Assembly: GCF_014696925.1 (NCBI RefSeq)
Contig: NZ_JACJQY010000028.1
Coordinates: 1-64,000 of the forward strand
Source of the DNA: Phormidium tenue FACHB-1050
GTDB lineage: Bacteria > Cyanobacteriota > Cyanobacteriia > Pseudanabaenales > Pseudanabaenaceae
Direction: 5' to 3'
Length of the DNA stretch: 64,000 nucleotides
The stretch's first letter is position 1, and the number at the start of each line of letters is the position of its first letter. The notes under the pieces were generated by a model. The model saw nothing but the letters and a program-made list of their open reading frames with translations. It was not told where the DNA came from and made no database searches. The position numbers and the translations under genes were made by a program. Of the stretch, positions 586-30,646 are shown one piece after another.

Positions 586-1452
586 CTATAGCTTATGAAA
601 TAAACTTTTCGTTCTTTTCACGATCGCTTTCTTCGTTAAAATTCCCTGCGAAGGACTGAATAATAGAGCTAATAGGAAAAGCCCTGAAATAATCAAAACG
701 ATCGCACTGCCCGAAGGAACGTTTTGATAATAGCTAATGTACATACCGCTAACACTAGCAATAACACCAAACAAGGCTCCTAGCAACATCATTAGGTGTA
801 ATTCCTTCACTAATAGGTAGGCTGTGGCAGCGGGTCCAGTGAGGAGTGAAACCACTAACACCACGCCGACCAATTGCATACTAGCAATAATCGTGAGGGT
901 GATGCCTGCCATCAGTCCAAAGTGAATGAAATGGACAGGTAATCCCATTGCTTTGGATGCTAATGGATCGAAGCAGTAGAAGATTAATTCACGGTAGAAG
1001 ATGATTACACAAGCTAAGACAGCGATCGCAATAATCAACGTTCGCCATAGGTCAGCAGTGGTCACTCCCAAAATATCGCCAAATAGAAAACTATGCAGAT
1101 CTAATTTGCTTTTAAGGGTAGTAATTAACATGACACCCAATGCTAAAAATCCAGAAAACACCAGCGCCATCGCCGTATCAACTTTAATTTTGGAATGGGT
1201 CTGAATCCAAGCCACGACAAAGGTGCTAATCGTACCTGCGATGAATGCCCCCAGAAAAATATCCATGCCAATGTAAAAGGCGATCGCCAGTCCTGGCAAG
1301 ACTGCATGGGCGACAACATCACCTAAAAGCCCCATGTGCTGCACGATCAGATAACTTCCAATTACTGCCGATAGAATCCCAATGAGAATACCAATCGCGA
1401 TCGCATTTCGCATAAACTCAAAGCCCAAAGGCTCTATTAACCAATTCAACAT
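586..1452 (-). CDS. znuB: Metal ABC transporter permease, ZnuB type
   Basis: Inner-membrane permease of the ABC-3 family (ZnuB/MntB/TroC). It forms the channel for Zn2+ or Mn2+ import with the ATPase encoded just upstream (1503-2255). The 288-residue protein has the family's usual length and consists almost entirely of hydrophobic segments. It contains the family-typical stretches GDVVAHAVLPG near residue 45 and GVVLVVSLLTGPAATA near residue 195. It lies 50 bp downstream of the ATPase gene on the same strand, so the two are probably co-transcribed from the Zur-box promoter at 2274. Zinc rather than manganese specificity is inferred from that operator. No substrate-binding protein (ZnuA) gene is in the window. 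Confidence 0.85.
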   Translation of the reverse strand: MLNWLIEPLGFEFMRNAIAIGILIGILSAVIGSYLIVQHMGLLGDVVAHAVLPGLAIAFYIGMDIFLGAFIAGTISTFVVAWIQTHSKIKVDTAMALVFSGFLALGVMLITTLKSKLDLHSFLFGDILGVTTADLWRTLIIAIAVLACVIIFYRELIFYCFDPLASKAMGLPVHFIHFGLMAGITLTIIASMQLVGVVLVVSLLTGPAATAYLLVKELHLMMLLGALFGVIASVSGMYISYYQNVPSGSAIVLIISGLFLLALLFSPSQGILTKKAIVKRTKSLFHKL

Positions 1453-2273: not shown

Positions 2274-2288
2274 TGATAATGATTATCA
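2274..2288. promoter_or_regulatory. Zur box, divergent znuC / 2334 promoter
   Basis: TGATAATGATTATCA is a perfect 7-1-7 palindrome matching the known cyanobacterial Zur operator core. It occurs nearly unchanged at 9761 and 12268. It lies between two divergent genes, both plausible members of a zinc regulon. Fur boxes have a similar AT-rich palindrome, so Fur is the main alternative. The zinc-related genes downstream favour Zur. Confidence 0.8.
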
Positions 2289-2333: not shown

Positions 2334-2603
2334 ATGTCCATCGATCTGTTCCCCAAAAAACCTGCCGTTAGTGCCGAACAGTCGCAGCAGGTCAAGGATT
2401 GGCTATATGAAATCTTGCGGATTGATCACCAAACGGTTATTTCTCTTAGTCAATTACAATGCCAAGATTCTGGATGTCCGCCCATTCAGACGGCGATCGC
2501 GATTATGACTAGCCCACATCGGATCATTCGGATTCACAAAGCAATTTCCGATATTACTTATGCTGATGTGGTACAGGTGATCGCTGTAAAAATTACAGTT
2601 TAA
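2334..2603 (+). CDS. Small protein with CxxxxCPP motif, COG0523-associated
   Basis: An 89-residue protein with no named function that I can assign. It has a central motif C43-x4-C48-P-P (QCQDSGCPP) followed by a hydrophobic beta-like segment (IQTAIAIM) and a charged C-terminal half (RIIRIHKAI). I recall similar short proteins with a GCPP motif beside CobW-family genes in other bacteria, but cannot verify this here. The gene starts 45 bp after the Zur box and is followed 30 bp later by the COG0523 GTPase, so the two look co-transcribed. The cysteine pair could bind zinc or hand it over, which is inference only. Confidence 0.75.
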   Translation: MSIDLFPKKPAVSAEQSQQVKDWLYEILRIDHQTVISLSQLQCQDSGCPPIQTAIAIMTSPHRIIRIHKAISDITYADVVQVIAVKITV

Positions 2604-2633: not shown

Positions 2634-3638
2634 ATGCAAACTCTTCAACTTGATATTCCTAAACGGGGAATGCCTGTGACAATTGTTACGGGATTCCTCG
2701 GCAGTGGCAAAACGACACTTCTCAATCAAATCCTTAAAAACCGTCAGGATTTGAAAGTGGCGGTTTTAGTGAATGAATTTGGCGACATTAACATTGATGG
2801 GCAGTTACTTGTTGATATTGAAGATGGCATGGTGGAGCTAAGCAATGGTTGTATTTGCTGCACGATCAATGACAGCTTAGTTGATGCGGTATATAACGTT
2901 TTAGAACGGCAAGAGCGAATTGATTATATGGTGATCGAGACAACTGGCGTTGCTGATCCTCTGCCGATCGCCTTAACTTTTTTGGGAACAGAGCTAAAGC
3001 ATTTTACGCGCCTTGATTCCATTCTCACAGTGATAGATGTAGAGACTTTTACTTCCGAACATTTTAAAAGTGAGGCAGCACTGAGTCAGGTGGAATATGG
3101 CGATATTGTGCTGTTGAACAAAACTGATTTAGTTCCTGAAGAGCAAGTTGAAGAGCTAGAAGAGTACCTCCGCAAGAAGAAATCCAAAGCGCGAATTTTG
3201 CGATCGCAATATGGAGAAGTTCCATTACCCCTAATCCTAGATGTAGATCTAGCCCAAACTAGTGTTTATCAACAAGTAGAGAAAGAGGATGAGATTCATC
3301 AACATGAGCATCACGAACACCATGAACATCATCATCACAACTCTGATCATTTAGCCAATGATGGATTTATCTCTGTCTCGTTTCAAAGCGATCGCCGATT
3401 TGATCTAGACAAGTTCACCCATTTCCTCGACAAGGTAATGCCTAACGATGTATTTCGAGCTAAGGGTGTTCTTAGTTTTGTATCTCAAGACTTGCGGTTT
3501 ATTTTTCAGCTAAGTGGAAAGCGCTACGAATTAAATTATGACCATCGGAAGAAACCTATTGATAATCAATTAGTTCTTATTGGCAGAAATCTTGATGCCC
3601 AAATGCTTCAGAGGCAATTACAGGAATGCTTGGTATAG
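2634..3638 (+). CDS. COG0523 (CobW/ZigA-type) GTPase, His-rich zinc chaperone candidate
   Basis: Putative GTP-dependent metallochaperone. Residues 20-28 form the P-loop GFLGSGKTT. Residues 72-76 carry the metal-binding GCICC motif. NKTD near 162 is the guanine-specificity motif, and the C-terminal CobW_C domain spans about 245-330. A histidine-rich linker at about residues 222-239 holds eleven histidines, a feature often seen in zinc-handling members. The gene is in a Zur-box-led operon with the mini-protein upstream and HisI 28 bp downstream. Delivery of Zn2+ to an apo-enzyme is the likely role, and HisI (a zinc enzyme) is an obvious neighbour client. That link is inferred from context. Confidence 0.85.
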   Translation: MQTLQLDIPKRGMPVTIVTGFLGSGKTTLLNQILKNRQDLKVAVLVNEFGDINIDGQLLVDIEDGMVELSNGCICCTINDSLVDAVYNVLERQERIDYMVIETTGVADPLPIALTFLGTELKHFTRLDSILTVIDVETFTSEHFKSEAALSQVEYGDIVLLNKTDLVPEEQVEELEEYLRKKKSKARILRSQYGEVPLPLILDVDLAQTSVYQQVEKEDEIHQHEHHEHHEHHHHNSDHLANDGFISVSFQSDRRFDLDKFTHFLDKVMPNDVFRAKGVLSFVSQDLRFIFQLSGKRYELNYDHRKKPIDNQLVLIGRNLDAQMLQRQLQECLV

Positions 3639-3666: not shown

Positions 3667-3999
3667 ATGTCTGATAACTGGATTGAAAATTTGAAATATG
3701 ATGCGGGAGGATTAATCCCTGCGATCGCTCAAGATCATCAAGATGGAACAATTTTGATGATGGCATGGATGAATCGTCATGCGCTGGAATTAACAATTTC
3801 AACTGGTGAAGTGCATTATTGGAGTCGATCTCGTCAAGAGCTATGGCATAAAGGCGCAACTTCAGGGCATATTCAAAAGCTCAAAAAGCTCTACTACGAT
3901 TGCGATCGCGATGTAATTCTCGTCAAAATCGAGCAGATTGGCGATATCGCCTGTCACACTGGTGCAAGAAGTTGTTTTTTTACAGAAGTTCCAGTATGA
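3667..3999 (+). CDS. hisI: Phosphoribosyl-AMP cyclohydrolase
   Basis: Catalyses hydrolytic ring opening of phosphoribosyl-AMP, the third step of histidine synthesis. The 110-residue protein is the monofunctional form without the HisE pyrophosphatase domain. Visible signatures are MMAWMNRHAL (about 31-40), YWSRSRQELWHKG (51-63) and the metal centre: C79 in DCDRD, C96 in ACHTG and C103 in GARSCF, all three zinc cysteines being present. It sits at the end of a putative Zur-regulated operon behind a COG0523 GTPase. It may therefore be a second, zinc-limitation copy of HisI. Whether a HisIE fusion exists elsewhere in the genome cannot be seen. Confidence 0.9.
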   Translation: MSDNWIENLKYDAGGLIPAIAQDHQDGTILMMAWMNRHALELTISTGEVHYWSRSRQELWHKGATSGHIQKLKKLYYDCDRDVILVKIEQIGDIACHTGARSCFFTEVPV

Positions 4000-4950: not shown

Positions 4951-7900
4951 ATGTCGCAGTCTGGGATGCTAGAACTAGCTCACAAAAAACTTTATTGGCC
5001 GAAACCTGATCAGATCTGGGAACCTAGTGGATCTGGTCCAAAGGTTTATGCTCAATTAGCTAAAGAAAAAATCGGGGAGAAAATCAAGCGGGAATTCCCA
5101 AAAGATGCCAAAGGTGTAAAAGTTAGTGTATTAGCAGCTAACCCAGATGGTGATGAAACAGAAGCGCCAATTGCTATCGTCTGCCAGTTTAATAGACCTA
5201 TCTCTTCAGCAGTAATTAAAGAAGTACATAGATTAGCGTGGAGCTTTAGTCGGGCGCGATCGCTAATTACAATAGAACCTAGCTTAATTCGAGTCTGGTC
5301 GTGCTGTGAACCTCCAACAGAAAAAGGAGAACTTAAAGCGGTTGCAACTGTAACTAAGGCTCATCTTTCTGAACAAGCTAACCCTTCTGACCAAGCAGCA
5401 AATGCTCTGCAATGGGTTGAATTAGTTTCTGGGAATTTTTTCCAGAATCATGAAAATCGCTTTAAGAGAAGCGGTGCTGCTGACCAAATGCTATTGGATA
5501 ATCTCAAACAAGTTCGACAACAGCTTGAGACCGATGGTTTGGATGTTGAAACTATCCATGATTTATTAGCAAGGATTATTTTTATCCAGTTCCTATTTCA
5601 GAAACAAGATTCTAAAGGTGAACCTGTTCTGAATGAGAGGATTTTGCAAGATTTACATTCACAAGGAGTTTTATCTAAATCTTATAGGGAATTATCTGAG
5701 ATTCTTGATAATTTTGATGATACTTACCATCTTTTTCGTTGGCTGAATGACAAGTTTAATGGCGATCTATTTCCTGGGAAAGGCGAAACAGAAGAAGAAC
5801 GTGAGGCTGAATGGCAAGAAGAAATACAAAAAATTAGAGTAGAAGAAAACCGATATCTAAAAAAGCTTGCAGATTTCGTCAGAGGCGATCTGAAGATGCA
5901 AGATGGGCAACTTTGCTTATGGAAGTTCTATTCTTTTGATGTCATTCCCCTTGACTTTATTAGCAGTATTTACGAAGAGTTTGTTAATAAAAAAGCAGGA
6001 GAAGGTGTTCACTATACTCCAGAATATATTGTTGATTTTATCTTAGATGGTGCTCTTCCTTGGGATGAAACAGAATGGGATCTCAAAATTTTAGATCCTG
6101 CTTGTGGTTCTGGCATCTTTTTGGTAAAAGCTTTCCAGAGATTGATTTACCGATGGGAATTAGCTCATGATAATGAAGGAATTCCAGCAAACGTTTTAAG
6201 GAATTTACTTGTCAACAATATATTTGGTGTTGATATTGATAAAGAAGCGGTTAGGGTTGCATCGTTTAGTCTCTATATGACGATGATAGATAGTATTGAT
6301 CCTCTGAAATATTGGGAAAATCAAGTTCGGTTTCCTCGGTTAAGGAATCAAAGACTAATTCATTCAGATTTTTTCGCAGAAGACATAGAAGGATTTCGTA
6401 CCGATCAAGATGCTGAAACTTATGACTTGGTTTTGGGTAATGCACCTTGGGGCAATGGGACGCTTACACCCTTAGCGTCTGAATGGCAAAAAAGAGATAA
6501 AGGTCGGTGGTTTGTTCCTGACAAAAATATTGGTCCGCTATTTTTACCCAAAGCGGCTGTTTTGACCAAGCTAGGTGGGCAGATATCGATGATGCAACCT
6601 GTATTCATACTGATTTTGAGTCAACTAGGTACTGCAAAGGAGTTTAGGAATAATTTGTTTTCAGAATTTTGTGTGGAAGAGATTATTAATCTAGCAATTT
6701 TACGCTTTGAGATTTTTAAAAATGCAATTTCTCCAGCTTGTATTATTACTCTTTCTGTACAAAAGCCTGATATCGAACATTCAACTGTTTATATATGCCC
6801 TAAGCCTAATTGTAGCAATGAAGATAACTACTATATAAAAATTGAGCCACAAGATATTAACACCATATATTTACAAGAAGCTATATGGCAACCTTTGGTA
6901 TGGACTGTCTTAATGTGGGGAGGTAGGCGAGATTTAAATCTGATACAACATTTAGCTAGACATGAAAGCTTATCTAAGTATGAAAAAAAAGGTCTTGTAA
7001 AAACGCGGCAAGGTGTAATTCCAGGAGATAGGAAAAAGTATCAAGAAGAACTACTTGGAAGAAGAAGAATATGGAAAGCCAAGTTCCCTCAAAATACTTT
7101 TCTGAAGCTAAATGCTGAAGATATACCTATTAATAACGATCCAATGACTCACTCAAGAGATTCAACGGATTTCTCAGCGTTTGAAATTCCACAGCTTATT
7201 CTCAAACAGAGTTGGCAGGCTTCAAGTAAGCGATTTCAAGCTGCTATTATTGAACCTGATGAACATAGTCATCGAGGTGTGATTTGTTCTGAAACTTGTG
7301 TGAGTGTGCATATACCTAATGATCATGCAGATCTCCTTAAGACTGCGTGTCTAATTTATAACAGTAGAATAGCAGTATATTACTTATTTCTATTAAATGC
7401 TTCTTTCGCTTCTGAGCGCCCAAAAGTTACTGTGGGGAACTTGTTAAGTGTACCAATTGTACAAAGAGAAGGATTAGATTTAGATATTGTCAAAACTTAT
7501 AATGATATTGACAGAATTGCGGGTGAATTATTTGCTCTTAAAGATAGTGAATATGTATTAATTAATGATCTTATAAACTACACACTGGCAGACTTTAAAG
7601 GGGATAAATTTTCTCCAGGAAGACTGAAAACCCAACGTTTTGGGCAAGCTTTACTTGATAATAACGAAGAACCAGAACTTAAAGAATATTGCGAATATTT
7701 TTTTCGTGTAATTAAAGGTGGATTTGGACAGGATAAGAAGGTTTGTGCAACTATTTTTCAGGAAGCAACAAATTATCATCTCCCTGTTAGGTTAGTAGCA
7801 ATATATCTAAATAAGTCGATTCATGACGGGATCAAGATAGAAACTATTAATTCTCAACACTTACTCAGTAGATTAGAGCAACTGAATAAGTTATTTATGG

Positions 7901-8127
7901 AGCAACCTAATTCTGATAATGGAGGAATTTTTTATCAACGTGTAGCCAGAATATATACCTCAACTACTTGGAATGGTGAGCAAGTACCAACAATATATTT
8001 GGTTAAACCAGACAAAATTCGTTACTGGACTCGTTCTATGGCTTTGCGTGATGCGGATGAAGTTGCCGCAGATATAATGCTTGGAAGGAAAGAGTTGATT
8101 AGAGAAATAGAAGTGGTAGCTCTATAA
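4951..8127 (+). CDS. N6-adenine DNA methylase, large class I-type
   Basis: A 1058-residue S-adenosylmethionine-dependent DNA methyltransferase. The catalytic core starts with GEGVHYTPEYIVDFIL (351-366). Motif I is LDPACGSGIF (381-390). NNIFGVDIDKEAVRVA (422-437) follows. The catalytic motif IV is NAPWG (497-501), where the usual NPPY/F/W has alanine at the second position. The N-terminal ~340 residues (PIAIVCQFNRPISSA near 73-87) show no clear nuclease signature. The C-terminal half probably holds target recognition. It is followed after 4 bp by the PD-(D/E)xK-like gene at 8132. The pair is probably a restriction-modification or related anti-phage system. A PglX role is unlikely because no pglZ or brxC is present. 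Confidence 0.82.
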   Translation: MSQSGMLELAHKKLYWPKPDQIWEPSGSGPKVYAQLAKEKIGEKIKREFPKDAKGVKVSVLAANPDGDETEAPIAIVCQFNRPISSAVIKEVHRLAWSFSRARSLITIEPSLIRVWSCCEPPTEKGELKAVATVTKAHLSEQANPSDQAANALQWVELVSGNFFQNHENRFKRSGAADQMLLDNLKQVRQQLETDGLDVETIHDLLARIIFIQFLFQKQDSKGEPVLNERILQDLHSQGVLSKSYRELSEILDNFDDTYHLFRWLNDKFNGDLFPGKGETEEEREAEWQEEIQKIRVEENRYLKKLADFVRGDLKMQDGQLCLWKFYSFDVIPLDFISSIYEEFVNKKAGEGVHYTPEYIVDFILDGALPWDETEWDLKILDPACGSGIFLVKAFQRLIYRWELAHDNEGIPANVLRNLLVNNIFGVDIDKEAVRVASFSLYMTMIDSIDPLKYWENQVRFPRLRNQRLIHSDFFAEDIEGFRTDQDAETYDLVLGNAPWGNGTLTPLASEWQKRDKGRWFVPDKNIGPLFLPKAAVLTKLGGQISMMQPVFILILSQLGTAKEFRNNLFSEFCVEEIINLAILRFEIFKNAISPACIITLSVQKPDIEHSTVYICPKPNCSNEDNYYIKIEPQDINTIYLQEAIWQPLVWTVLMWGGRRDLNLIQHLARHESLSKYEKKGLVKTRQGVIPGDRKKYQEELLGRRRIWKAKFPQNTFLKLNAEDIPINNDPMTHSRDSTDFSAFEIPQLILKQSWQASSKRFQAAIIEPDEHSHRGVICSETCVSVHIPNDHADLLKTACLIYNSRIAVYYLFLLNASFASERPKVTVGNLLSVPIVQREGLDLDIVKTYNDIDRIAGELFALKDSEYVLINDLINYTLADFKGDKFSPGRLKTQRFGQALLDNNEEPELKEYCEYFFRVIKGGFGQDKKVCATIFQEATNYHLPVRLVAIYLNKSIHDGIKIETINSQHLLSRLEQLNKLFMEQPNSDNGGIFYQRVARIYTSTTWNGEQVPTIYLVKPDKIRYWTRSMALRDADEVAADIMLGRKELIREIEVVAL

Positions 8128-8131
8128 CATT

Positions 8132-8863
8132 ATGAGTAGGAGAAGAACAGCATCCCAAACGATAGGTGAAGCAAGGTATCCTGATAATCCCGATTTTGTC
8201 GAGTTGGCTAAAATATGGAATCCTGCTGCTACCTCAATTCTTTTAAATTTAATTTGGCAAGGCTATAACCTATGTTTCCAAGAAATTTTGTCAAGAGTTG
8301 ACGTATTACAGTCAGATGATCAACTAGAACGAGAACTTACTCAAATTCTCGATTTATATATTCGTAAAGGTATGCAAGGATTTGAGCCTTTTATTTTACA
8401 ACATGAGTCATACGAGATGGAGCTACGGGGAGCATATCGACCTAGACAATACGATTTAGCATTTGTATGGTTTGCAAACCCCAAAATAAAGTATCCTTTG
8501 GAGGCTAAAGTATTGCGCTCAGACATCTCTGTTAATGAATATGTTAATGAGATTACAAGTAACTTTCTTACCTGCCAATACTCCCCTTTTTCAAGTGAAG
8601 GAGCAATGCTTGGATATTTGCTTCAAGGAAATCCTGCAACAGCATTTAAAAATATTGCAACATCAGTTCCCTGTACTTTATCAGATCATCCCGATTTTAT
8701 AGGACGTGATCACAAGATTTCAGATCATCAGCGTGTAGTTCCAGAAGATAAAACTTATCCCGACAAATTTCGCTGTCATCATTTGCTTTTACAATTGAGC
8801 AAGGAAACCAATGTTAAACAAGCATCTAGAAAAAGAAAAAGTCAAAAAAAATTGAGCGATTAG
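8132..8863 (+). CDS. Putative PD-(D/E)xK nuclease partner of the methylase
   Basis: A 243-residue protein of no family I recognise by name. It contains a plausible PD-(D/E)xK core: RQYDLAFVW with D108, then YPLEAKVLRSD with E124-x-K126, preceded by a helix-rich segment and an acidic YEMELRG strand. This is the layout of many restriction nucleases. The C-terminus is lysine-rich. It starts 4 bp after the methylase stop, which indicates translational coupling. The likely role is the cleavage subunit of the methylase system. The alternative is an accessory specificity protein. Confidence 0.6.
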   Translation: MSRRRTASQTIGEARYPDNPDFVELAKIWNPAATSILLNLIWQGYNLCFQEILSRVDVLQSDDQLERELTQILDLYIRKGMQGFEPFILQHESYEMELRGAYRPRQYDLAFVWFANPKIKYPLEAKVLRSDISVNEYVNEITSNFLTCQYSPFSSEGAMLGYLLQGNPATAFKNIATSVPCTLSDHPDFIGRDHKISDHQRVVPEDKTYPDKFRCHHLLLQLSKETNVKQASRKRKSQKKLSD

Positions 8864-9760: not shown

Positions 9761-9775
9761 TGATAATCATTATCA
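9761..9775. promoter_or_regulatory. Zur box upstream of 9788 gene
   Basis: TGATAATCATTATCA differs from the box at 2274 only at the central base. It ends 12 bp before the ATG of the CobW-like gene, so repressor binding would cover the transcription or translation start region. The mRNA leader must be very short if transcription starts here. Confidence 0.8.
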
Positions 9776-9787
9776 CTTTATTGCTAA

Positions 9788-10609
9788 ATGTCTATGCCTG
9801 TCGTCAAAGCATTAACTCAGAAAGATCTATCTGCTCAAGTATTGGCGATCGCAGGAGCAGTGGGAATTGGCAAAACTGGTTGGATCTTTCAGCAAATTGA
9901 GCAAATATCTGCACCAGTTGTTTATTTCTGTCCTAGTGCTGGTAATGTTCCCATCGATCCAACTTGTCTTATCGCAGAATTTCCCCATGTGCAAATTTTC
10001 GCCGATGGGCAGGAATTAGAACTGATTGAAAAAGTAGAGCAGGGCGCGATCGCTTTTATAGAGTTGGGCTTTCACTTAGATTTGCGATCGGGCGATATGC
10101 TGCTAGATACTCTTGCCGATCGCCATGCTTGTAGACGGATTGCCCTTGTTCCCTCTGAGTTAACCAGTTCTGAATGGCATGACTGGGCGAATGAAGTAAT
10201 AGAAGTCAAATATAATTTAGATTTACATGATTTGCAGATCTGGCGATCGCCCTTTACAGGACAGGTTTTTGATCCTTCAAGTTTGAATGTCTTATGGTAC
10301 GAAATCACCCAAGGTGCTTATGGAGAAGTGACGCGAGTGAAAGGGATTTTTGATCTGTTTGACGGTAGAGCTTTTCATCTTGATTTTGTCGCAGGTATGG
10401 AAGATAGCCTCTATTTACCCCTTGATGTCCCGCTTTGGTTGGATGGTCGCCCTGAACGCTTTAGTGGAATTGAAGTCGTTGGGCGCAATCTCGATGGTAA
10501 GGCGATCGCGCAGTGCATTATCGATTGCTGCCTGTCCGAAGAAATCATGCTCCATTATCAAAATCAAATCAAACAATCGCGCCAACAATCAAGCCAAATG
10601 GCAGCGTAA
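9788..10609 (+). CDS. Degenerate CobW/COG0523-like protein
   Basis: A 273-residue protein with P-loop GAVGIGKT (23-30). A C-terminal CobW_C-like domain runs from GEVTRVKGIFDLFDG through FSGIEVVGRNLDG (about 178-240). The CxCC metal motif and the NKxD guanine motif of true COG0523 GTPases are missing, and the middle region is short. It may have lost GTP specificity and serve as a partner or regulator of the two intact COG0523 proteins in this window. The gene is headed by a Zur box and followed after 65 bp by the metallophosphoesterase pair. A role in zinc homeostasis is inferred. Confidence 0.72.
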   Translation: MSMPVVKALTQKDLSAQVLAIAGAVGIGKTGWIFQQIEQISAPVVYFCPSAGNVPIDPTCLIAEFPHVQIFADGQELELIEKVEQGAIAFIELGFHLDLRSGDMLLDTLADRHACRRIALVPSELTSSEWHDWANEVIEVKYNLDLHDLQIWRSPFTGQVFDPSSLNVLWYEITQGAYGEVTRVKGIFDLFDGRAFHLDFVAGMEDSLYLPLDVPLWLDGRPERFSGIEVVGRNLDGKAIAQCIIDCCLSEEIMLHYQNQIKQSRQQSSQMAA

Positions 10610-10617
10610 ATCCTATA

Positions 10618-10648
10618 AAAGTTGGTCAGGCAAAGCCTGACCAACTTT
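10618..10648. repeat. Palindrome between CobW-like and phosphoesterase genes
   Basis: A perfect 14-bp stem AAAGTTGGTCAGGC with an AAA loop. It follows the stop at 10607-10609 and lies 27 bp before the next ATG. There is no T-tract, so it is more likely an mRNA processing or attenuation hairpin than a full terminator. Confidence 0.7.
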
Positions 10649-10674: not shown

Positions 10675-11499
10675 ATGAAAATCGCTGTAATGTCTTGCAT
10701 TCATGGCAACTATGAAGCCCTTGATGCAGTTTTGAGAGATATTGACCATCAAAAAGCCGAAAAAATCTTCTGCTTAGGCGATCTCGTTGGTTATGGACCT
10801 TTTCCCAGTAACGTCGTGGAAATGGTGCGATCGCTCGATATTCCCACGACACAGGGATGCTGGGATGAGGATATTGTAGAAGGATTGAATTCCTGTGAAT
10901 GTAGCTATCCATCGATGCTTGCCGAAAAGCGCGGGCGGCTTGCCCATGAATGGACAAATGAGCATATATATCCTGAGACAAAGGAATATCTAGCTGCTTT
11001 ACCGAAAGTGATTAAGCATGACAATCTCGCTTTTGTGCATGGCAGTCCGCAAAGTCAGCATGAATATCTTTTGCCAGAACTAGATGGATTTATTGCCCTA
11101 GAGAGAGTTCTCTCGACGGGAGCCGATATGCTCTTTTGTGGACATACTCATGTGCCTTATGTGCGAACCTTAGATGCAGGTAAATTACGCCTCTTGGTGA
11201 GAACTGGTACAGAGGTTCCAGAAGCAGAAATGCGTGAATTTAATGCACCCTTAAAACGAATCGTCAATGTTGGCTCAGTCGGTGAGCCGCGTCATGGTCG
11301 CCCCAATGCCACCTATGTGATCTATGACACCGATAGCGATCGCGTTACCTTGCGGGAAGTGGAATATGACTATCAAAAAACCTGTGCAGCAATTATTGAG
11401 AGAGGTTTACCACCAATTTTTGCATGGCGCTTAGCTAAGGGTTTAGAATTTGCCGAACGTGCTGATGATGCTTCTCATTTATGCGAGAGAGGTGTGTAG
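10675..11499 (+). CDS. Metallophosphoesterase with substituted metal ligands
   Basis: A 274-residue calcineurin-like phosphoesterase of the YfcE/MJ0936 type. Conserved parts are HGNYEAL, CLGDLVGYGP, AFVHGSP and FCGHTHVP. The first motif, normally DxHGN, reads SCIHGN, so the metal-bridging region aspartate is cysteine. The third motif, normally GNHD, reads GCWDED, so the metal-ligand asparagine is cysteine. Other ligands remain. This suggests a changed metal site, perhaps zinc, or altered activity. The start at 10675 is preferred because upstream in-frame codons read through the preceding gene and palindrome. The stop abuts the ATG of a paralogue at 11500. The pair is co-transcribed from the Zur-box promoter. 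Confidence 0.82.
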   Translation: MKIAVMSCIHGNYEALDAVLRDIDHQKAEKIFCLGDLVGYGPFPSNVVEMVRSLDIPTTQGCWDEDIVEGLNSCECSYPSMLAEKRGRLAHEWTNEHIYPETKEYLAALPKVIKHDNLAFVHGSPQSQHEYLLPELDGFIALERVLSTGADMLFCGHTHVPYVRTLDAGKLRLLVRTGTEVPEAEMREFNAPLKRIVNVGSVGEPRHGRPNATYVIYDTDSDRVTLREVEYDYQKTCAAIIERGLPPIFAWRLAKGLEFAERADDASHLCERGV

Positions 11500-12231
11500 A
11501 TGTCATATTGGGCAATTTTAAGCGGTATCGAAGCTAATCTCACGGCTTACGAAGCAGTGCTAGAAGATATTAAGCGACAGGTTCCGAAAGTTACCGAATT
11601 GTATATTCTTGGTGATGTGATTAATGCGACTACTGCTAGTGAGAAGGTCGTAGAGAGGATTCGCAATCCCCGTATTGGTGAGCTAGTGCCGCAGGTTTGT
11701 AAAGGCTGGTGGGAAGAGCAAGTAATGATGCTGCATGGATTCGTTCCCGATCTTGAGCCAAATCCTTTGGTAGAAAAATATGGCGCGGCTGGGGTAAAAG
11801 CTCTTTGGGACAGTATTTCCAAAGAAACTGTGGAATGGATTAGCAATCTCCATTTTGCCTTCATGGAATTTGATTGTCTATTAGTACATGGCAGTAGTTT
11901 GAGTGTGTTTGAAGAACTCACGCCTGAAAGTTCACCTTTACTACTTTTAGATCGAATTGCACGGAGTAATGCTAATCGTCTATTTTGCGGACGTTCTGGG
12001 CAAACCTTTCGCTATCAGATTAAGGATGGTTCCCTCAATTCCCATGTGTTAACCCTTGATGGTGCAGAGGCTTTGGAGACTTTTAATACTAGCGATCGCC
12101 TTGCGATCGGTGTTGGTAATGTTGGCGGTACTCCTAACCAAGCGACTTATACCATCTATAGCCCTAATACTGACATCGTAAAATTTCGTACAGTGCGGTA
12201 TGGCAAAAGTAAAGGCTTTGGAAAAACTTGA
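11500..12231 (+). CDS. Metallophosphoesterase-like paralogue lacking metal ligands
   Basis: A 243-residue paralogue of the upstream phosphoesterase. The first motif has become ILSGIEANLTAYEAV, so both ligands of DxH are lost. LYILGDVI is kept. The GNHD position reads KGWWEE. LLVHGSS keeps the histidine. The final GHTH reads CGRSGQTF. With at least four ligands gone it is unlikely to be an active enzyme and may be a regulatory partner. It directly abuts its neighbour (stop at 11497-11499, ATG at 11500), which supports a stoichiometric complex. The Zur-operon context points to zinc limitation. Confidence 0.75.
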   Translation: MSYWAILSGIEANLTAYEAVLEDIKRQVPKVTELYILGDVINATTASEKVVERIRNPRIGELVPQVCKGWWEEQVMMLHGFVPDLEPNPLVEKYGAAGVKALWDSISKETVEWISNLHFAFMEFDCLLVHGSSLSVFEELTPESSPLLLLDRIARSNANRLFCGRSGQTFRYQIKDGSLNSHVLTLDGAEALETFNTSDRLAIGVGNVGGTPNQATYTIYSPNTDIVKFRTVRYGKSKGFGKT

Positions 12232-12267: not shown

Positions 12268-12282
12268 TGATAATGATTATCA
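12268..12282. promoter_or_regulatory. Zur box upstream of porin gene
   Basis: TGATAATGATTATCA is identical to the box at 2274. The palindrome extends one more base pair on each side (A and T). It lies 40 bp upstream of the porin ATG. Confidence 0.82.
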
Positions 12283-12322: not shown

Positions 12323-13918
12323 ATGTTCAAGCAATTTTCCAAATCCATATCAAAAGCGATCGCTATTTCTGCGATCGGGATTCTACCTAGTGCCGTATCC
12401 AGTGTGTCGGCTCAATCTATCCCTCCAAACAAAGATGTCATTGGACAGAACGTTACATCAGTTTCGCAACTAAGCGATGTAAGACCCACCGATTGGGCTT
12501 TTACGGCTCTGCAATCCTTAGTAGAACGCTATGGCTGTATCGCAGGATATCCCGATCGCACCTTTCGCGGTAATCAAGCCACCAGTCGTTATGAATTTGC
12601 GGCGGGGCTAAATGCTTGTTTAGATAAAATCAATGAGATTATTTCCGCAGGGCTTGCCGATAAAGTTGGGAAAGAAGATCTTGCCACATTACAAAAACTG
12701 CAAGAGGAATTTGCCGCCGAACTAGCCACATTGCGCGGTCGGGTGGATGCCCTAGATGCTAAAACCGCCAAATTGGAAGCACAGCAGTTCTCTACTACCA
12801 CGAAACTAGAAGGTCAAGCGATCGCGGCTGTTTCGGCAGGAACTTCAGGCTCTAATTTCCTTTTGGACTCAACAGGAACACCGACTACCAATGCTGGTAA
12901 GGTCAATACAACTGTGATCAGCCGAGTACGTCTGAACTTTAAGACGAGTTTCACAGGTGAAGATTTACTGCTCACACGTATCGAGCTTGGCAATGGTGGC
13001 ACAGGACTAGGCAATTCTCTTGAGGCTCCTGAGAGCTTATTAGGGTTCACAGGATTTGGGAATAGTTCTAAATTTGATTACAGTGGCGTTGGCACTACGG
13101 CAACACTCAATCGCTTACGATACGATTTCCCGATTGGTAAAGATATTCAAGCTTCAATTGGCACAAATATGTCACTGAATGATCATCTGGATGCCAATAG
13201 TTTTGCCAATGATGAGTCGGCAGACTTTTCCAGTGGGATGTTTATCAATAATCCTTTGATTTTGCCTGTGAATGATGGTGCTGGAGCCGCGATCGCTTGG
13301 AATTTTGGTGGTAGTGCTTTCACTCTAAGAGCAGGTTATGTCGCTCAGAATGCGAGTCTTCCGACCTCTGACGGAACGATCAATCGTGGCTTATTTGGCG
13401 ATCCCTATCAAGGTACAGTTGAGCTAGAGTTTGCGCCGAAAAATGCTGAAGATGCTAGTCCCTTTGCAATTCGTCTGCAATATACTCGCGCCTCGGTAAA
13501 TAATCTGGACTACAACACAGGCGGCGTAAATCTTGAGTGGGCATTTAATAAAGCTGTAGCCGTTTTCGGACGCTATGGATTCGGCAATATCAGTAATCGC
13601 GGTACTGCCATTTCTGCCGCACTTCCTAGCTATACAACTACAGCCAATGACTCTCTAAGTCCCCAGACTTGGTCTGCGGGTTTTGCTTTTCCTGATTTGT
13701 TTAAGGAAGGGGCGATGGCAGCGATCGCGGTTGGACAACCTTTCATTGAGAACCAAGTGGGTAATGCTACTCAAACCAATGTGGAACTGTTCTATCGCTT
13801 CCCTATCTCTAACAATATCAGCATCACTCCAGACTTACAGTTTATCTTCAATCCCAATAACAACAGCAACAATAGCACCATCACTGTCGGCACATTGAGA
13901 ACTGTGTTTACTTTCTAG
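12323..13918 (+). CDS. SLH-domain OprB-type outer-membrane porin
   Basis: A 531-residue outer-membrane channel. A signal peptide covers about residues 1-30, cut near VSAQ. An S-layer homology domain spans about 50-110 (LSDVRPTDWAFTALQ, YPDRTFRGNQATSRYEFAAG). A coiled coil of about 45 residues (LATLQKLQEEFAAELATLR...) follows, and the rest is a beta-barrel domain ending in phenylalanine (TVFTF), as is usual for outer-membrane proteins. The family allows passive uptake of small solutes and ions. The Zur box directly upstream suggests induction under zinc starvation to admit zinc or zinc complexes. The next gene (COG0523) follows after 45 bp and is probably in the same operon. Confidence 0.88.
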   Translation: MFKQFSKSISKAIAISAIGILPSAVSSVSAQSIPPNKDVIGQNVTSVSQLSDVRPTDWAFTALQSLVERYGCIAGYPDRTFRGNQATSRYEFAAGLNACLDKINEIISAGLADKVGKEDLATLQKLQEEFAAELATLRGRVDALDAKTAKLEAQQFSTTTKLEGQAIAAVSAGTSGSNFLLDSTGTPTTNAGKVNTTVISRVRLNFKTSFTGEDLLLTRIELGNGGTGLGNSLEAPESLLGFTGFGNSSKFDYSGVGTTATLNRLRYDFPIGKDIQASIGTNMSLNDHLDANSFANDESADFSSGMFINNPLILPVNDGAGAAIAWNFGGSAFTLRAGYVAQNASLPTSDGTINRGLFGDPYQGTVELEFAPKNAEDASPFAIRLQYTRASVNNLDYNTGGVNLEWAFNKAVAVFGRYGFGNISNRGTAISAALPSYTTTANDSLSPQTWSAGFAFPDLFKEGAMAAIAVGQPFIENQVGNATQTNVELFYRFPISNNISITPDLQFIFNPNNNSNNSTITVGTLRTVFTF

Positions 13919-13963: not shown

Positions 13964-14926
13964 ATGATCACCAACACACAAATTCCCGTCACCGTCCTCA
14001 CAGGCTACCTCGGCGCAGGAAAAACCACATTACTTAATCGCATTCTCACCCATGAACATGGTAAAAAAGTTGCTGTCATCGTCAATGAATTTGGCGAAGT
14101 GGGCATCGATCACAAATTAGTGGTCAATGCCGATGAAGAAATCTTTGAGATGAATAATGGTTGTATTTGCTGCACTGTGCGCGGTGACTTGATTCGGATT
14201 ATTACAAACTTAATGCGCCGCCGTGACAAGTTCGATCATCTAGTCATTGAAACTACGGGACTCGCTGACCCTGCCCCCGTAATTCAAACCTTCTTTGTTG
14301 ATGAAGATGTCAGTGCCAAAACAAAGCTAGATGCAGTAGTCACCGTCGTTGATGCTAAACATATCTCTCAGCATTGGGATGCGGAAGAAGCTCAGGAACA
14401 AATTGCTTTTGCGGATATTATTCTGCTCAACAAAACTGATTTGGTCAGTGAAACAGAACTATTAGAACTAGAACAACGCATTAAATCCATGAACTTAATG
14501 TGTAAAATCTATCGCACGCAAAACTCAGAGATTGAAATGGATGCAGTTTTAGGTGTTGGTGCATTTCAGCTAGATCGGGCTTTGCAAATCGATCCTGAGT
14601 TTCTTGGCGAAGATGCCCATGAGCATGACGACACGGTGAAATCTGTGGCGATCGTTGAAGAGGGTGAACTCTATTTACCTAAAGTCAATGCTTGGATTAG
14701 CGACCTATTAAGAGAGCAAGGCGTTGATATTTTCAGGATGAAAGGTATTCTCAATATCAAAGGAATTGATGAGCGCTTTGTGTTTCAAGGTGTGCATATG
14801 TTGTTTGACGCTACCCGCGATCGCCTATGGAAACCCGATGAGCATCGCCATAATGAACTCGTATTCATCGGACGAAACCTTGACTCAGTAAAGTTAAAAT
14901 CAGATTTTCTTGCTTGTATGTATTGA
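13964..14926 (+). CDS. COG0523 GTPase (CobW family)
   Basis: A 320-residue putative GTP-dependent metallochaperone. It has P-loop GYLGAGKTT (14-22), metal motif GCICC (66-70), Walker B-like [12 protein letters not shown] and guanine motif NKTD. The CobW_C domain (about 225-315) ends with [16 protein letters not shown]. The linker has only a few histidines (EDAHEHDD), unlike the His-rich paralogue at 2634, so the two may serve different clients. It lies downstream of the Zur-box porin gene without an obvious terminator between them. A zinc role is inferred from context. Confidence 0.85.
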
Positions 14927-28239: not shown

Positions 28240-28803
28240 TTACTTCTTACCAGTCTTACCAGCCTTACGTCTGACGAATTCGCCAAAGTAACGAATACCC
28301 TTGCCTTTGTATACTTCAGGAGGACGTACAGCACGAATTTTGGCTGCTAAGTTACCAACGATTTCTTTGTCAATACCTTCTACAACAATAAATGTGCCTT
28401 GAGGTACTTTCTTGCCAGAGGCATCTTCAACTGCGAGGGAAACTCCTGTAGGAGGAATAATATCAACAGTGTGGCTGTAGCCAACGGTCAGAACAATATT
28501 GCTGCCGTTCAAGTTAGCCCGATAACCAACACCTTGAATTTCCAACTTACGCTGAAAGCCAGTGGACACACCTTCGACCATGTTGGCAACGAGGGTGCGG
28601 AAAAGTCCGTGCTGTTGCCTTGCAGGACGAGATTCATTGGCACGATTAACAACTAAGTTGTTTTCTTCTTGCAGAACTTCCACAGTGGGTGGCAACACCC
28701 GTTTAAGTTCTCCTTTAGGTCCTTTGACGGTTACCTCTTGCCCAACGATCGAGACCGCAACTTTAGGGGGAAGAGGAATGGGACGTTTTCCAATACGAGA
28801 CAT
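28240..28803 (-). CDS. rplF: 50S ribosomal protein L6
   Basis: A 187-residue protein with the duplicated L6 fold. MSRIGKRPIPLPPKV marks the start. The C-terminal signature is PPEVYKGKGIRYFGEFVRRKAGK. It binds near the GTPase-associated centre of 23S rRNA. It lies between rpsH and rplR. Confidence 0.95.
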   Translation of the reverse strand: MSRIGKRPIPLPPKVAVSIVGQEVTVKGPKGELKRVLPPTVEVLQEENNLVVNRANESRPARQQHGLFRTLVANMVEGVSTGFQRKLEIQGVGYRANLNGSNIVLTVGYSHTVDIIPPTGVSLAVEDASGKKVPQGTFIVVEGIDKEIVGNLAAKIRAVRPPEVYKGKGIRYFGEFVRRKAGKTGKK

Positions 28804-28875
28804 GTCTGTTTTCCGTTGCTTGTAATGTTATGTGCTGAGTTAACAGCCTGAATTACCAGATCTTGAGGATCTGAA

Positions 28876-29277
28876 TTACCAGATATAGCAAAGGACTTCA
28901 CCGCCGACACCCTGTTTACGGGCTTCGCGATCGGTCATGATCCCTTTAGAGGTGGAGATGATCGCAATGCCGATCCCACCTAATACACGGGGTAATTCTT
29001 TGGAGTTCGAGTAAACCCGTAAACCAGGTTTGCTAACGCGCTTGAGGCGCTTAATAATCGATTGACGATTTTTGCCTTCATACTTGAGGGCGACGACCAA
29101 AGCGCGGTCGATACTTTCGCCTGTTTCTTCAAAATCTGCGATAAAACCTTCTTGTTTCATCACTCGGGCTATGCTCAACGTCATTCTTGTAGCAGGAATG
29201 GAAGTTGTCTGGTGCTTTGCAAGTGTTGCATTGCGAATGCGGGTAAGCATGTCCGAGATGGTGTCGTTGGTAGCCAT
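28876..29277 (-). CDS. rpsH: 30S ribosomal protein S8
   Basis: A 133-residue 16S rRNA-binding protein. The N-terminus is [14 protein letters not shown]. The C-terminal signature [31 protein letters not shown] is complete. It follows rplE directly. The rpsN gene (S14), found between rplE and rpsH in many bacteria, is absent here. A 13-bp direct repeat (TGAATTACCAGAT) lies just after the stop. Confidence 0.95.
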
Positions 29278-29300
29278 CCTTATCTCCTAATTCGATCTAC

Positions 29301-29846
29301 TTATGATTCTCTAAAGGGCATACCAACTGCTTTCAGGAGCGCACGTCCTTCTTCGTCCGTGTTGGCAGTGGTAATGATGGAAATATCAAGCCCCCGAATT
29401 TGCTCAATACTGTCGTAGCTGATTTCGGGGAAGATAAGTTGCTCGCGAACACCGAGGGTATAGTTACCACGTCCATCAAAGCTCTTGGGGCTAACACCGC
29501 GAAAGTCACGGATGCGAGGCAAGGAGAAGTTGATTAGACGATCCAAGAAGTTATTCATCTTGTCGCGGCGGAGGGTGACCATCATGCCGACGGGCATTCC
29601 TTGACGCAATTTGAAACCAGCGATCGCTTTTTTAGCTCTAGTTACCACGGGCTTTTGACCAGCGATCGTGGCAATTTCGGTTAAAGACGCTTCTAGGGAT
29701 TTTGCATTTTGTGCAGCTTCACCTAGACCACGGTTGATCACAACTTTCTCAAATCTGGGAACTTGATGGATGTTGGTGTACTTGAACTGCTCCATTAATT
29801 TAGGAACAGCTTGTTTGGCATAGACTTCGGCAAACGGTGTCAGCAT
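29301..29846 (-). CDS. rplE: 50S ribosomal protein L5
   Basis: A 181-residue 5S rRNA-binding protein of the central protuberance. Standard stretches are [39 protein letters not shown] and [17 protein letters not shown]. It lies between rplX and rpsH. Confidence 0.95.
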
Positions 29847-29894
29847 TTTATCTTCCTCGATGATTTTTCCTGGGCTTGGTCAGGTTGTGTAGAA

Positions 29895-30278
29895 TTATTT
29901 CTTTTCAGTCTTAACGGAATCAACGATTTCGCCAGTCTTTTTCAACATTCTTACTTTCTTGCCATCATCCGTAAAGGTGAAGCAAGAACGACTAGCGGTC
30001 TTTTCCTTTTCGGAATATAACAACACTTTAGAACTGTGGATCGGGAACTCGCGAGTGATGATTTGTCCAGACTCGCCATCAGCTTGAGGCTTGACATGCT
30101 TAGTCTTAACATTCACACCTTCAACGATGATGGTGCTGTCTTTAGGGAAAACCTGTAACACCTTTGCTACAGTCCCTTTAGAGCTTCCTGAAATTACTTG
30201 AACCACATCATCTTTTTTGACATGAATCTTAAAAGACTTGCGGTTGCCGCGATAGGCAGGTTTTGACTTGAATGACAT
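29895..30278 (-). CDS. rplX: 50S ribosomal protein L24
   Basis: A 127-residue protein that initiates 50S assembly. The KOW motif is in [31 protein letters not shown] and [13 protein letters not shown] follow. The N-terminal ~17 residues are an extension relative to E. coli L24. Its ATG abuts the end of rplN (30278). Confidence 0.94.
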
Positions 30279-30646
30279 TACAGTACCTCTGGCGCTAGGG
30301 AGATAATTTTAGTGAAATTTTTATCCCGCAACTCACGCGCAACTGGACCAAATACGCGGGTTCCTTTGGGGTTGCCGTCTTGGTTAATGATTACAGCGGC
30401 ATTGTCGTCAAAGCGAATTCTCATGCCGCTTTCACGGTTGATGGATGCTTTAGTACGAACAATCACGGCGCGGACAACATCAGATTTTTTGACTGGCATA
30501 TTGGGAGCAGCGTCTTTGACAGTAGCGATGATGACATCACCAACTCCGCCAAAGGCGCGATTACCACCAGCTAGGACGCGAATACATAGCAGCTTCTTAG
30601 CCCCGCTATTATCCGCAACGTTTAGATAAGACTCTTGTTGAATCAT
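30278..30646 (-). CDS. rplN: 50S ribosomal protein L14
   Basis: A 122-residue protein at the subunit interface. [19 protein letters not shown] and the C-terminal [25 protein letters not shown] are diagnostic. It overlaps rplX by one base. Confidence 0.96.

What the first reader, a model, noticed from the sequence alone, without database searches (positions are those of the whole stretch)
10675..12231. Metallophosphoesterase pair with cysteine-substituted and lost metal ligands
In the first protein the DxHGN motif reads SCIHGN and GNHD reads GCWDED, so two metal ligands become cysteine while GD, HG and GHTH remain. In the second, DxH becomes GIE, GNHD becomes GWWEE and GHTH becomes GRSG, so it should be inactive. 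The genes abut exactly and follow a Zur box. An enzyme with a zinc-thiolate-type centre plus a dead partner could be a zinc sensor, a zinc store or an unusual phosphatase.
Basis: partly seen in the sequence, partly recalled or inferred. Interest (0 to 1): 0.65.

Follow-up and report, generated by a model that had tools for sequence, protein, structure and literature searches.

The report
Zinc-starvation metallophosphoesterase with cysteine-rebuilt active site
About a third of sampled cyanobacterial genomes, including the tiny ocean ones, carry the same three genes, very probably switched on when zinc is scarce; one encodes a phosphatase-like metalloprotein whose metal-holding residues were swapped for cysteines and another its apparently dead twin, and as far as I could find nobody has studied them.

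Summary
MPE1 (10675-11499) and MPE2 (11500-12231) are an intact, abutting metallophosphoesterase pair in a Pseudanabaena-like cyanobacterium. MPE1 has Cys at two canonical metal-ligand positions (Asp8, Asn62) and Trp for the catalytic His; MPE2 has lost most ligands. Neither is decay: Cys62 is invariant in every complete orthologue examined, from Pseudanabaena to picocyanobacteria, Cys8 in all but one small clade (Asp), and dN/dS is 0.04-0.09. The unit is a three-gene operon: a P-loop/CobW_C protein (UP273, 9788-10609), MPE1, MPE2, behind one of only four perfect Zur boxes in the genome. In 195 class genomes the three genes are inherited together (61 of 62). MPE1 also has an invariant Cys74-x-Cys76 pair, shared by position and spacing with metallophosphoesterases of arsenic operons, the family of Car1, an arsenate reductase in which Cys74 and Cys76 are reported essential. 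Best reading: a Zur-controlled, Car1-like thiol metallophosphoesterase whose binuclear site was rebuilt with thiolate ligands, with a dead paralogue and a dedicated NTPase. The chemistry (redox/metal transfer versus hydrolysis) is inferred. In Synechococcus PCC 7002, where Zur control of this locus was measured, MPE1 is deleted, which may be why the operon was overlooked.

The parts
9761..9775 (.). Zur box TGATAATCATTATCA, perfect palindrome, 13 nt before the start codon of UP273
   Evidence: boxes with <=2 mismatches precede 49 of 76 orthologous operons against 0.006 expected per window in shuffled sequence
9788..10609 (+). UP273: 273-aa short G3E/COG0523-like protein (P-loop GAVGIGKT, C-terminal CobW_C-like domain), first gene of the operon
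   Evidence: next to MPE1 in 75 of 76 loci; 54 loci have a 4-nt ATGA overlap of its stop with the MPE1 start
10619..10648 (+). perfect hairpin (core GTTGGTCAGGC-AAA-GCCTGACCAAC, 10621-10645) between UP273 and MPE1, -23 kcal/mol, unique in the genome; possible attenuator or processing site
10675..11499 (+). MPE1: 274-aa metallophosphoesterase with Cys8, Cys62, Trp63, Cys74-x-Cys76 and a His268-x-Cys270 tail
10696..10698 (+). codon of Cys8 (Asp of DxH in canonical enzymes)
10858..10860 (+). codon of Cys62 (Asn of GNHD in canonical enzymes)
10894..10902 (+). Cys74-Glu-Cys76, the CxC pair shared with ars-operon (Car1-type) metallophosphoesterases
11500..12231 (+). MPE2: 243-aa pseudo-metallophosphoesterase (G9-I-E11, GWWEE, GRSG)
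12268..12282 (.). second Zur box, before the porin/COG0523 unit downstream
12323..13918 (+). SLH/OprB-type porin (NCBIfam 'iron uptake porin') of the same zinc island
13964..14926 (+). full-length COG0523 (CobW-type) GTPase of the same island
2274..2288 (.). third Zur box, between znuC/znuB (1503-2255 and 586-1452, minus strand) and a plus-strand unit with an 89-aa ORF, COG0523 (2634-3638) and hisI (3667-3999)

Best explanation
UP273-MPE1-MPE2 is a Zur-controlled zinc-starvation module. MPE1 is the working part: a metallophosphoesterase-fold protein of the Car1 type, with a Cys74-x-Cys76 pair by the binuclear metal site, in which one ligand of each metal (D8 for metal 1, N62 for metal 2) has become Cys and the catalytic His a Trp. 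It most likely does thiol-dependent chemistry (redox or metal transfer) at a thiolate-rich metal centre, not ordinary phosphate-ester hydrolysis. MPE2 is a catalytically dead paralogue kept as a structural or regulatory partner, and UP273 is a shortened G3E-type NTPase that loads or services the metal centre. Shown: gene structure, residue conservation, co-inheritance, Zur boxes, fold, shared CxC position. Inferred: metal occupancy, closeness of the four cysteines, heteromer, NTPase role, reaction.
For: Invariant C62/C74/C76 and near-invariant C8; MPE fold with 3rqz, SapH and 1nnw as nearest structures; CxC with the same spacing after G(N/C)(Y/W)D in ars-operon MPEs, and Cys74/Cys76 reported as essential for the arsenate reductase Car1 (PMC12124457); three-gene co-inheritance 61/62, Fisher p about 1e-43; UP273 adjacent in 75/76 loci and MPE2 in the same locus in 57/64, MPE2 elsewhere in the genome, intact or broken, in 7 of the 8 loci checked that lacked it; Zur boxes; zinc-starvation neighbours znuABC, hemB, folE, thrS, hisI, COG0523; the orthologous promoter gene G0131 rises in a zur mutant and with TPEN (PMC4628125; identity of the locus); dN/dS 0.04-0.09 for MPE1 and MPE2.
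Against: No metal, activity or structure has been measured. C8 is Asp in five sequences of one clade, so a thiolate there is not indispensable. The residue 61-90 stretch is weakly predicted (pLDDT 53-65) and no coordinates were available, so the closeness of C8, C62, C74 and C76 is not shown. The trees do not resolve one origin of the CxC motif. Cys-rich zinc binding in a zinc-starvation regulon is paradoxical unless the metal is not zinc or zinc is being moved. Two thirds of class genomes lack the module.
Confidence: 0.45

Rival explanations
1. MPE1/MPE2 is a zinc-handling protein (buffer, chaperone or sensor): the MPE scaffold holds Zn(II) at Cys/His/Asp sites and passes it to or from partners with the help of UP273, without catalysis.
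For: Zur island and COG0523-type partner; loss of the catalytic His to Trp63; extra invariant Cys/His including the C-terminal His268-x-Cys270 tail; ligand set C8/H10/D36/H159 and D36/C62/H122/H157 suits Zn(II).
Against: A buffer needs neither an 80%-identical active-site cleft across the phylum nor the CxC pair at the catalytic position of Car1. C8 can be Asp.
Confidence: 0.25
2. MPE1 is still a hydrolase (phosphodiesterase or nucleotidase) with an altered metal preference, useful when zinc is scarce, in the manner of the replacement paralogues HemB, FolE, ThrS and HisI nearby.
For: All other ligands (H10, D36, H122, H157, H159) are invariant; nearest characterised fold is the Ap4A hydrolase/phosphodiesterase SapH and 3rqz; neighbours are paralogues of zinc enzymes.
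Against: Catalytic His replaced by Trp and N by Cys without exception. Zinc-sparing paralogues usually lose Cys ligands, whereas this one gains them.
Confidence: 0.15
3. MPE1 is an arsenate (or other oxyanion) reductase like Car1, with zinc regulation incidental.
For: CxC at the Car1 positions (PMC12124457).
Against: In the annotated and clustered neighbourhoods the context is the zinc island; two ligands that the ars-operon MPEs keep are replaced; MPE1+CAR is not recovered as one clade.
Confidence: 0.07
4. The cysteines hold an iron-sulfur cluster instead of zinc.
For: Four conserved Cys (8, 62, 74, 76) around one predicted site.
Against: C8 is Asp in one clade; no iron-sulfur partner genes seen; Zur rather than Fur context.
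Confidence: 0.05
5. Sequencing error or decaying genes.
For: None.
Against: Conserved across the class, intact frames, dN/dS 0.04-0.09.
Confidence: 0.01

Closest known systems
Car1 arsenate reductase of Rufibacter tibetensis and ars-operon metallophosphoesterases (Shen et al. 2024, cited through PMC12124457; MrMe1/MrMe2 in PMC10652896)
   Same: MPE fold; Cys74-x-Cys76 with the same spacing after G(N/C)(Y/W)D; about 35% identity to the plasmid-borne relatives
   Different: Those keep D8 and N62 and have Tyr63, and sit in ars operons; MPE1 has C8, C62 and W63, a C-terminal HxC tail, and sits behind a Zur box with UP273 and MPE2
Sphaerobacter metallophosphoesterase 3rqz and SapH/Spr1479 (3qfm, asymmetric Ap4A hydrolase)
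   Same: closest solved folds (VIA-align Z 27.4 and 26.4)
   Different: 3rqz has the canonical D, N and H ligands and no CxC
COG0523/G3E GTPases (YjiA, CobW, ZigA)
   Same: UP273 has a P-loop and a CobW_C-like domain; best PDB hit is YjiA
   Different: short, with no CxCC and no NKxD motif in its consensus
Cyanobacterial Zur regulon (znuABC, hemB2, folE2, thrS2, COG0523; PMC6103462, PMC4628125)
   Same: same regulator site and neighbours
   Different: the metallophosphoesterase pair is not described in the reviews and papers that could be searched

Membership tests
Calcineurin-like metallophosphoesterase superfamily (MPE1) | Pfam Metallophos/Metallophos_2 match and fold | tested here: met
   PF12850 E 9.6e-20, PF00149 E 7e-11; fold matches
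Calcineurin-like metallophosphoesterase superfamily (MPE1) | complete ligand set D-x-H, GD, GNH(D/E), H, GHxH | tested here: not met
   D8 is C and N62 is C, catalytic H63 is W
Calcineurin-like metallophosphoesterase superfamily (MPE2) | fold and homology | tested here: met
   no Pfam hit alone, but profile match to MPE1 E 1e-32 and Foldseek to 1nnw and 3rqz
Calcineurin-like metallophosphoesterase superfamily (MPE2) | catalytic metal ligands | tested here: not met
   only D39 and H130 of the ligands kept
Car1-type arsenate reductase | Cys74-x-Cys76 pair | tested here: met
Car1-type arsenate reductase | otherwise canonical binuclear ligands, as in the ars-operon relatives | tested here: not met
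   C8 and C62
Car1-type arsenate reductase | arsenic operon context | tested here: not met
   zinc island instead
Car1-type arsenate reductase | one clade with the ars-operon MPEs | tested here: inconclusive
   not recovered; AU p 0.095 without MPE2 rows, 0.0044 for MPE1+CAR when MPE2 rows are present but outside the group
Car1-type arsenate reductase | arsenate reductase activity | not testable with these tools
   needs purified protein
COG0523/G3E GTPase (UP273) | P-loop plus CobW_C domain | tested here: met
   P-loop nearly invariant, CobW_C in 38 of 39 members at E<=0.1
COG0523/G3E GTPase (UP273) | CxCC metal motif and NKxD guanine motif | tested here: not met
   absent from the A3 consensus
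Zur regulon member | Zur box in the promoter, conserved across species | tested here: met
Zur regulon member | derepression without Zur or with TPEN | not testable with these tools
   reported for the orthologous first gene in PCC 7002, G0131 (PMC4628125); not measured for MPE1

The most novel reading that the evidence does not exclude
A new kind of metallophosphoesterase-fold enzyme with a thiolate-ligated binuclear centre and a redox-active CxC pair, working as a heteromer with a pseudoenzyme and loaded by its own G3E-type NTPase, that performs thiol-dependent metal release, transfer or redox chemistry during zinc starvation in cyanobacteria.
Probability: 0.35. Interest if true: 0.82.

Novelty: new variant of a known kind. 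Interest (0 to 1): 0.62.

Why it matters
Zinc limits cyanobacteria, including the most abundant ocean ones, and the known zinc-starvation response consists of importers, COG0523 chaperones and replacement paralogues. This is a tightly co-inherited three-gene component that I did not find described, with a protein more conserved than its partners and an active site in which two ligands of a classic binuclear centre became cysteine. I know of no other metallophosphoesterase with such ligands (own knowledge, not a search). It makes testable what the MPE fold can do once it stops hydrolysing phosphoesters, and whether Car1-like redox chemistry is wider than arsenic.

Tried and rejected
Decay or sequencing error: rejected. 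The five D8 sequences as a mark of decay: rejected, since C62, C74 and C76 stay invariant there and the other clade-specific changes touch none of the ligand positions checked. Phage origin: one weak phage hit at 28% identity and no viral-contig relative. Plasmids outside cyanobacteria: identities drop from 74-77% to at most 36%. CxC as proof of common descent with Car1: the trees join MPE1 with MPE2 and place the ars-operon proteins with Vampirovibrionia ones, supports below or near threshold, long branches; left open. Laying the whole genome in the script box was not possible. The Napolitano 2012 and Shen 2024 papers are not held, so what I recall of Shen's mechanism is not used as evidence beyond what PMC12124457 states. 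Structure models gave no coordinates, so ligand geometry could not be measured. A fused-chain prediction of MPE1-MPE2 was considered but not run: without coordinates or an interface score it would not have tested the heterodimer.

Full report
What is there. The two genes are intact and abut as described. MPE1 (274 aa) matches Metallophos_2 and Metallophos in Pfam. MPE2 (243 aa) has no Pfam match of its own, but its profile matches MPE1's at E 1e-32 and its predicted fold (pLDDT 91.9) matches 1nnw, 3rqz and SapH. MPE1's model (pLDDT 81) gives the same neighbours, with VIA-align Z of 27.4 for 3rqz and 26.4 for SapH. Residues 61-90, which hold Cys62, Cys74 and Cys76, are the weak part of that model.

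The substitutions are conserved. In 81 cyanobacterial orthologues (71-97% identity) C62, C74, C76, H10, D36, H122, H157, H159, H207, C237, H268 and C270 are invariant and C8 is Cys in 76; the other five, from one Crocosphaera/Cyanothece-type clade, have Asp8. That first set was found partly with a pattern covering GCWDED, so I repeated the survey with a profile: all 41 complete orthologues read from it, including picocyanobacterial ones near 60% identity, have C8, C62, C74 and C76. In a sample of 195 Cyanobacteriia genomes the orthologue is present in 62, in 43 of 107 genera; apart from fragments its scores run from about 430 to 570 bits, while the more distant phylum members score about 120 or less. 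MPE1 and MPE2 evolve under strong purifying selection (dN/dS 0.04-0.08 and 0.07-0.09). In the canonical enzyme (superfamily knowledge) metal 1 is held by D8, H10, D36 and H159 and metal 2 by D36, N62, H122 and H157, so each metal gets one Cys here. The catalytic His of GNHD is Trp63. In MPE2 only the D39 and H130 equivalents remain; H10 is Glu (Lys or Gly in picocyanobacteria) and GHTH is mostly GRSG, so it should be a pseudoenzyme.

The operon has a third member. UP273 has a P-loop and a CobW_C-like domain but lacks the CxCC and NKxD motifs of COG0523 proteins. It directly precedes MPE1 in 75 of 76 loci, with a 4-nt ATGA overlap of stop and start in 54 loci; MPE2 lies in the same locus in 57 of 64. 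In eight loci without a neighbouring MPE2 (seven with enough downstream sequence to judge, plus a short contig), the genome carries MPE2 elsewhere, intact in five, broken or partial in two, absent in one. Across the 195 genomes, 61 of 62 with MPE1 have MPE2 and 61 of 62 have UP273; only five genomes have MPE2 alone, four of them as fragments, and four have UP273 alone (Fisher p about 1e-43).

Zinc control. A perfect box TGATAATCATTATCA lies 13 nt before UP273. Only four perfect boxes exist in this 5.6-Mb genome, three of them in this window; the fourth lies at a znuA-like gene. Boxes with at most two mismatches precede 49 of 76 orthologous operons; shuffled sequence would give 0.006 per window. 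The neighbours are those of the zinc-starvation response: znuABC, hemB, folE, thrS, hisI, COG0523, Fur-family genes. Synechococcus PCC 7002 gives experimental support. There the gene G0131 is strongly induced in a zur mutant and by TPEN, while G0129 and G0130 are not (PMC4628125). Reading that plasmid and matching genes to locus tags by order and description, I find that G0131 is UP273 cut off after residue 147, MPE1 is entirely gone, G0129 is the last half of MPE2, and G0130 is an unrelated 235-aa ORF. So the promoter responds to zinc, but in the one strain where I found it measured the key protein is missing.

Relatives. Outside cyanobacteria the nearest plasmid-borne relatives (about 35%) include metallophosphoesterases in arsenic operons of Hymenobacter, Pontibacter, Pedobacter, Paraclostridium and Rubrobacter. 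These keep D8 and N62 but share Cys74-x-Cys76 with the same spacing, in the context G(N/C)(Y/W)D-x9-C-x-C. PMC12124457 reports that such a protein resembles Car1, an arsenate reductase of Rufibacter tibetensis, and that Cys74 and Cys76 are essential to its activity. 3rqz, the Vampirovibrionia and the haloarchaeal relatives lack the pair. The trees join MPE1 with MPE2 (95/85), consistent with MPE2 being a cyanobacterial duplicate, but do not decide whether the CxC pair arose once.

How it probably works. With Car1 as precedent, the simplest reading is that MPE1 is a thiol-dependent metalloenzyme: C74/C76 form the working pair, and C8 and C62 give the binuclear centre a thiolate character that suits Zn or Co and not ester hydrolysis. 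The invariant His268-x-Cys270 tail, absent from the non-cyanobacterial relatives compared, may add a ligand or a lid. UP273 may load or drive it, and MPE2 may scaffold or regulate it. Whether the output is a reduction, movement of zinc out of thiolate stores, or something else is unknown; I put about 0.45 on the thiol-catalytic reading and 0.25 on non-catalytic zinc handling. A protein that gains Cys ligands in a regulon whose known replacement paralogues save zinc is the real puzzle.

Limits. No coordinates, no metal data, no activity data; the Car1 paper and the main Anabaena Zur paper were not held; the sample outside cyanobacteria is plasmids only. That the pair is undescribed rests on a library restricted to open licences.

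Noticed in passing
L154 (pAQ7 of Synechococcus PCC 7002) 28717-30488: The operon is wrecked: UP273 cut after residue 147, MPE1 lost, MPE2 N-terminal half lost, an unrelated 235-aa ORF in between; this fits the odd expression pattern of G0129-G0131 reported in PMC4628125.
   Followed up: yes
window 10619-10648: Perfect 14-bp-stem hairpin between UP273 and MPE1, unique in the genome, kept with two changes in a related locus (L005); possible attenuator separating the two genes' expression.
   Followed up: partly
window 4951-8863: A 1058-aa ORF that reads as a DNA methyltransferase-type protein and a 243-aa ORF without a Pfam match lie between the two halves of the zinc island; possibly a later insertion. 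The function of the large ORF was judged by eye, not tested.
   Followed up: no
L147 4001-5512 (Pedobacter plasmid): Tandem metallophosphoesterase pair in an arsenic operon, the first with the CxC pair, the second with canonical GNHD; a parallel to the cyanobacterial pair. Similar pairs are named MrMe1/MrMe2 in PMC10652896.
   Followed up: partly
window 2334-2603: 89-aa ORF with no Pfam match directly behind a perfect Zur box and before a COG0523 gene and hisI.
   Followed up: no
genome G432 C30:44001-44678; genomes G005 and G416: Rare genomes with a seemingly intact MPE2 but no MPE1 (G432), or UP273 but no MPE1 (G005, G416).
   Followed up: no
L065, L076, L077, L082, L084: Clade in which Cys8 of MPE1 is Asp again; MPE2 is unlinked in the loci where this could be judged and partial in L084's genome.
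   Followed up: partly
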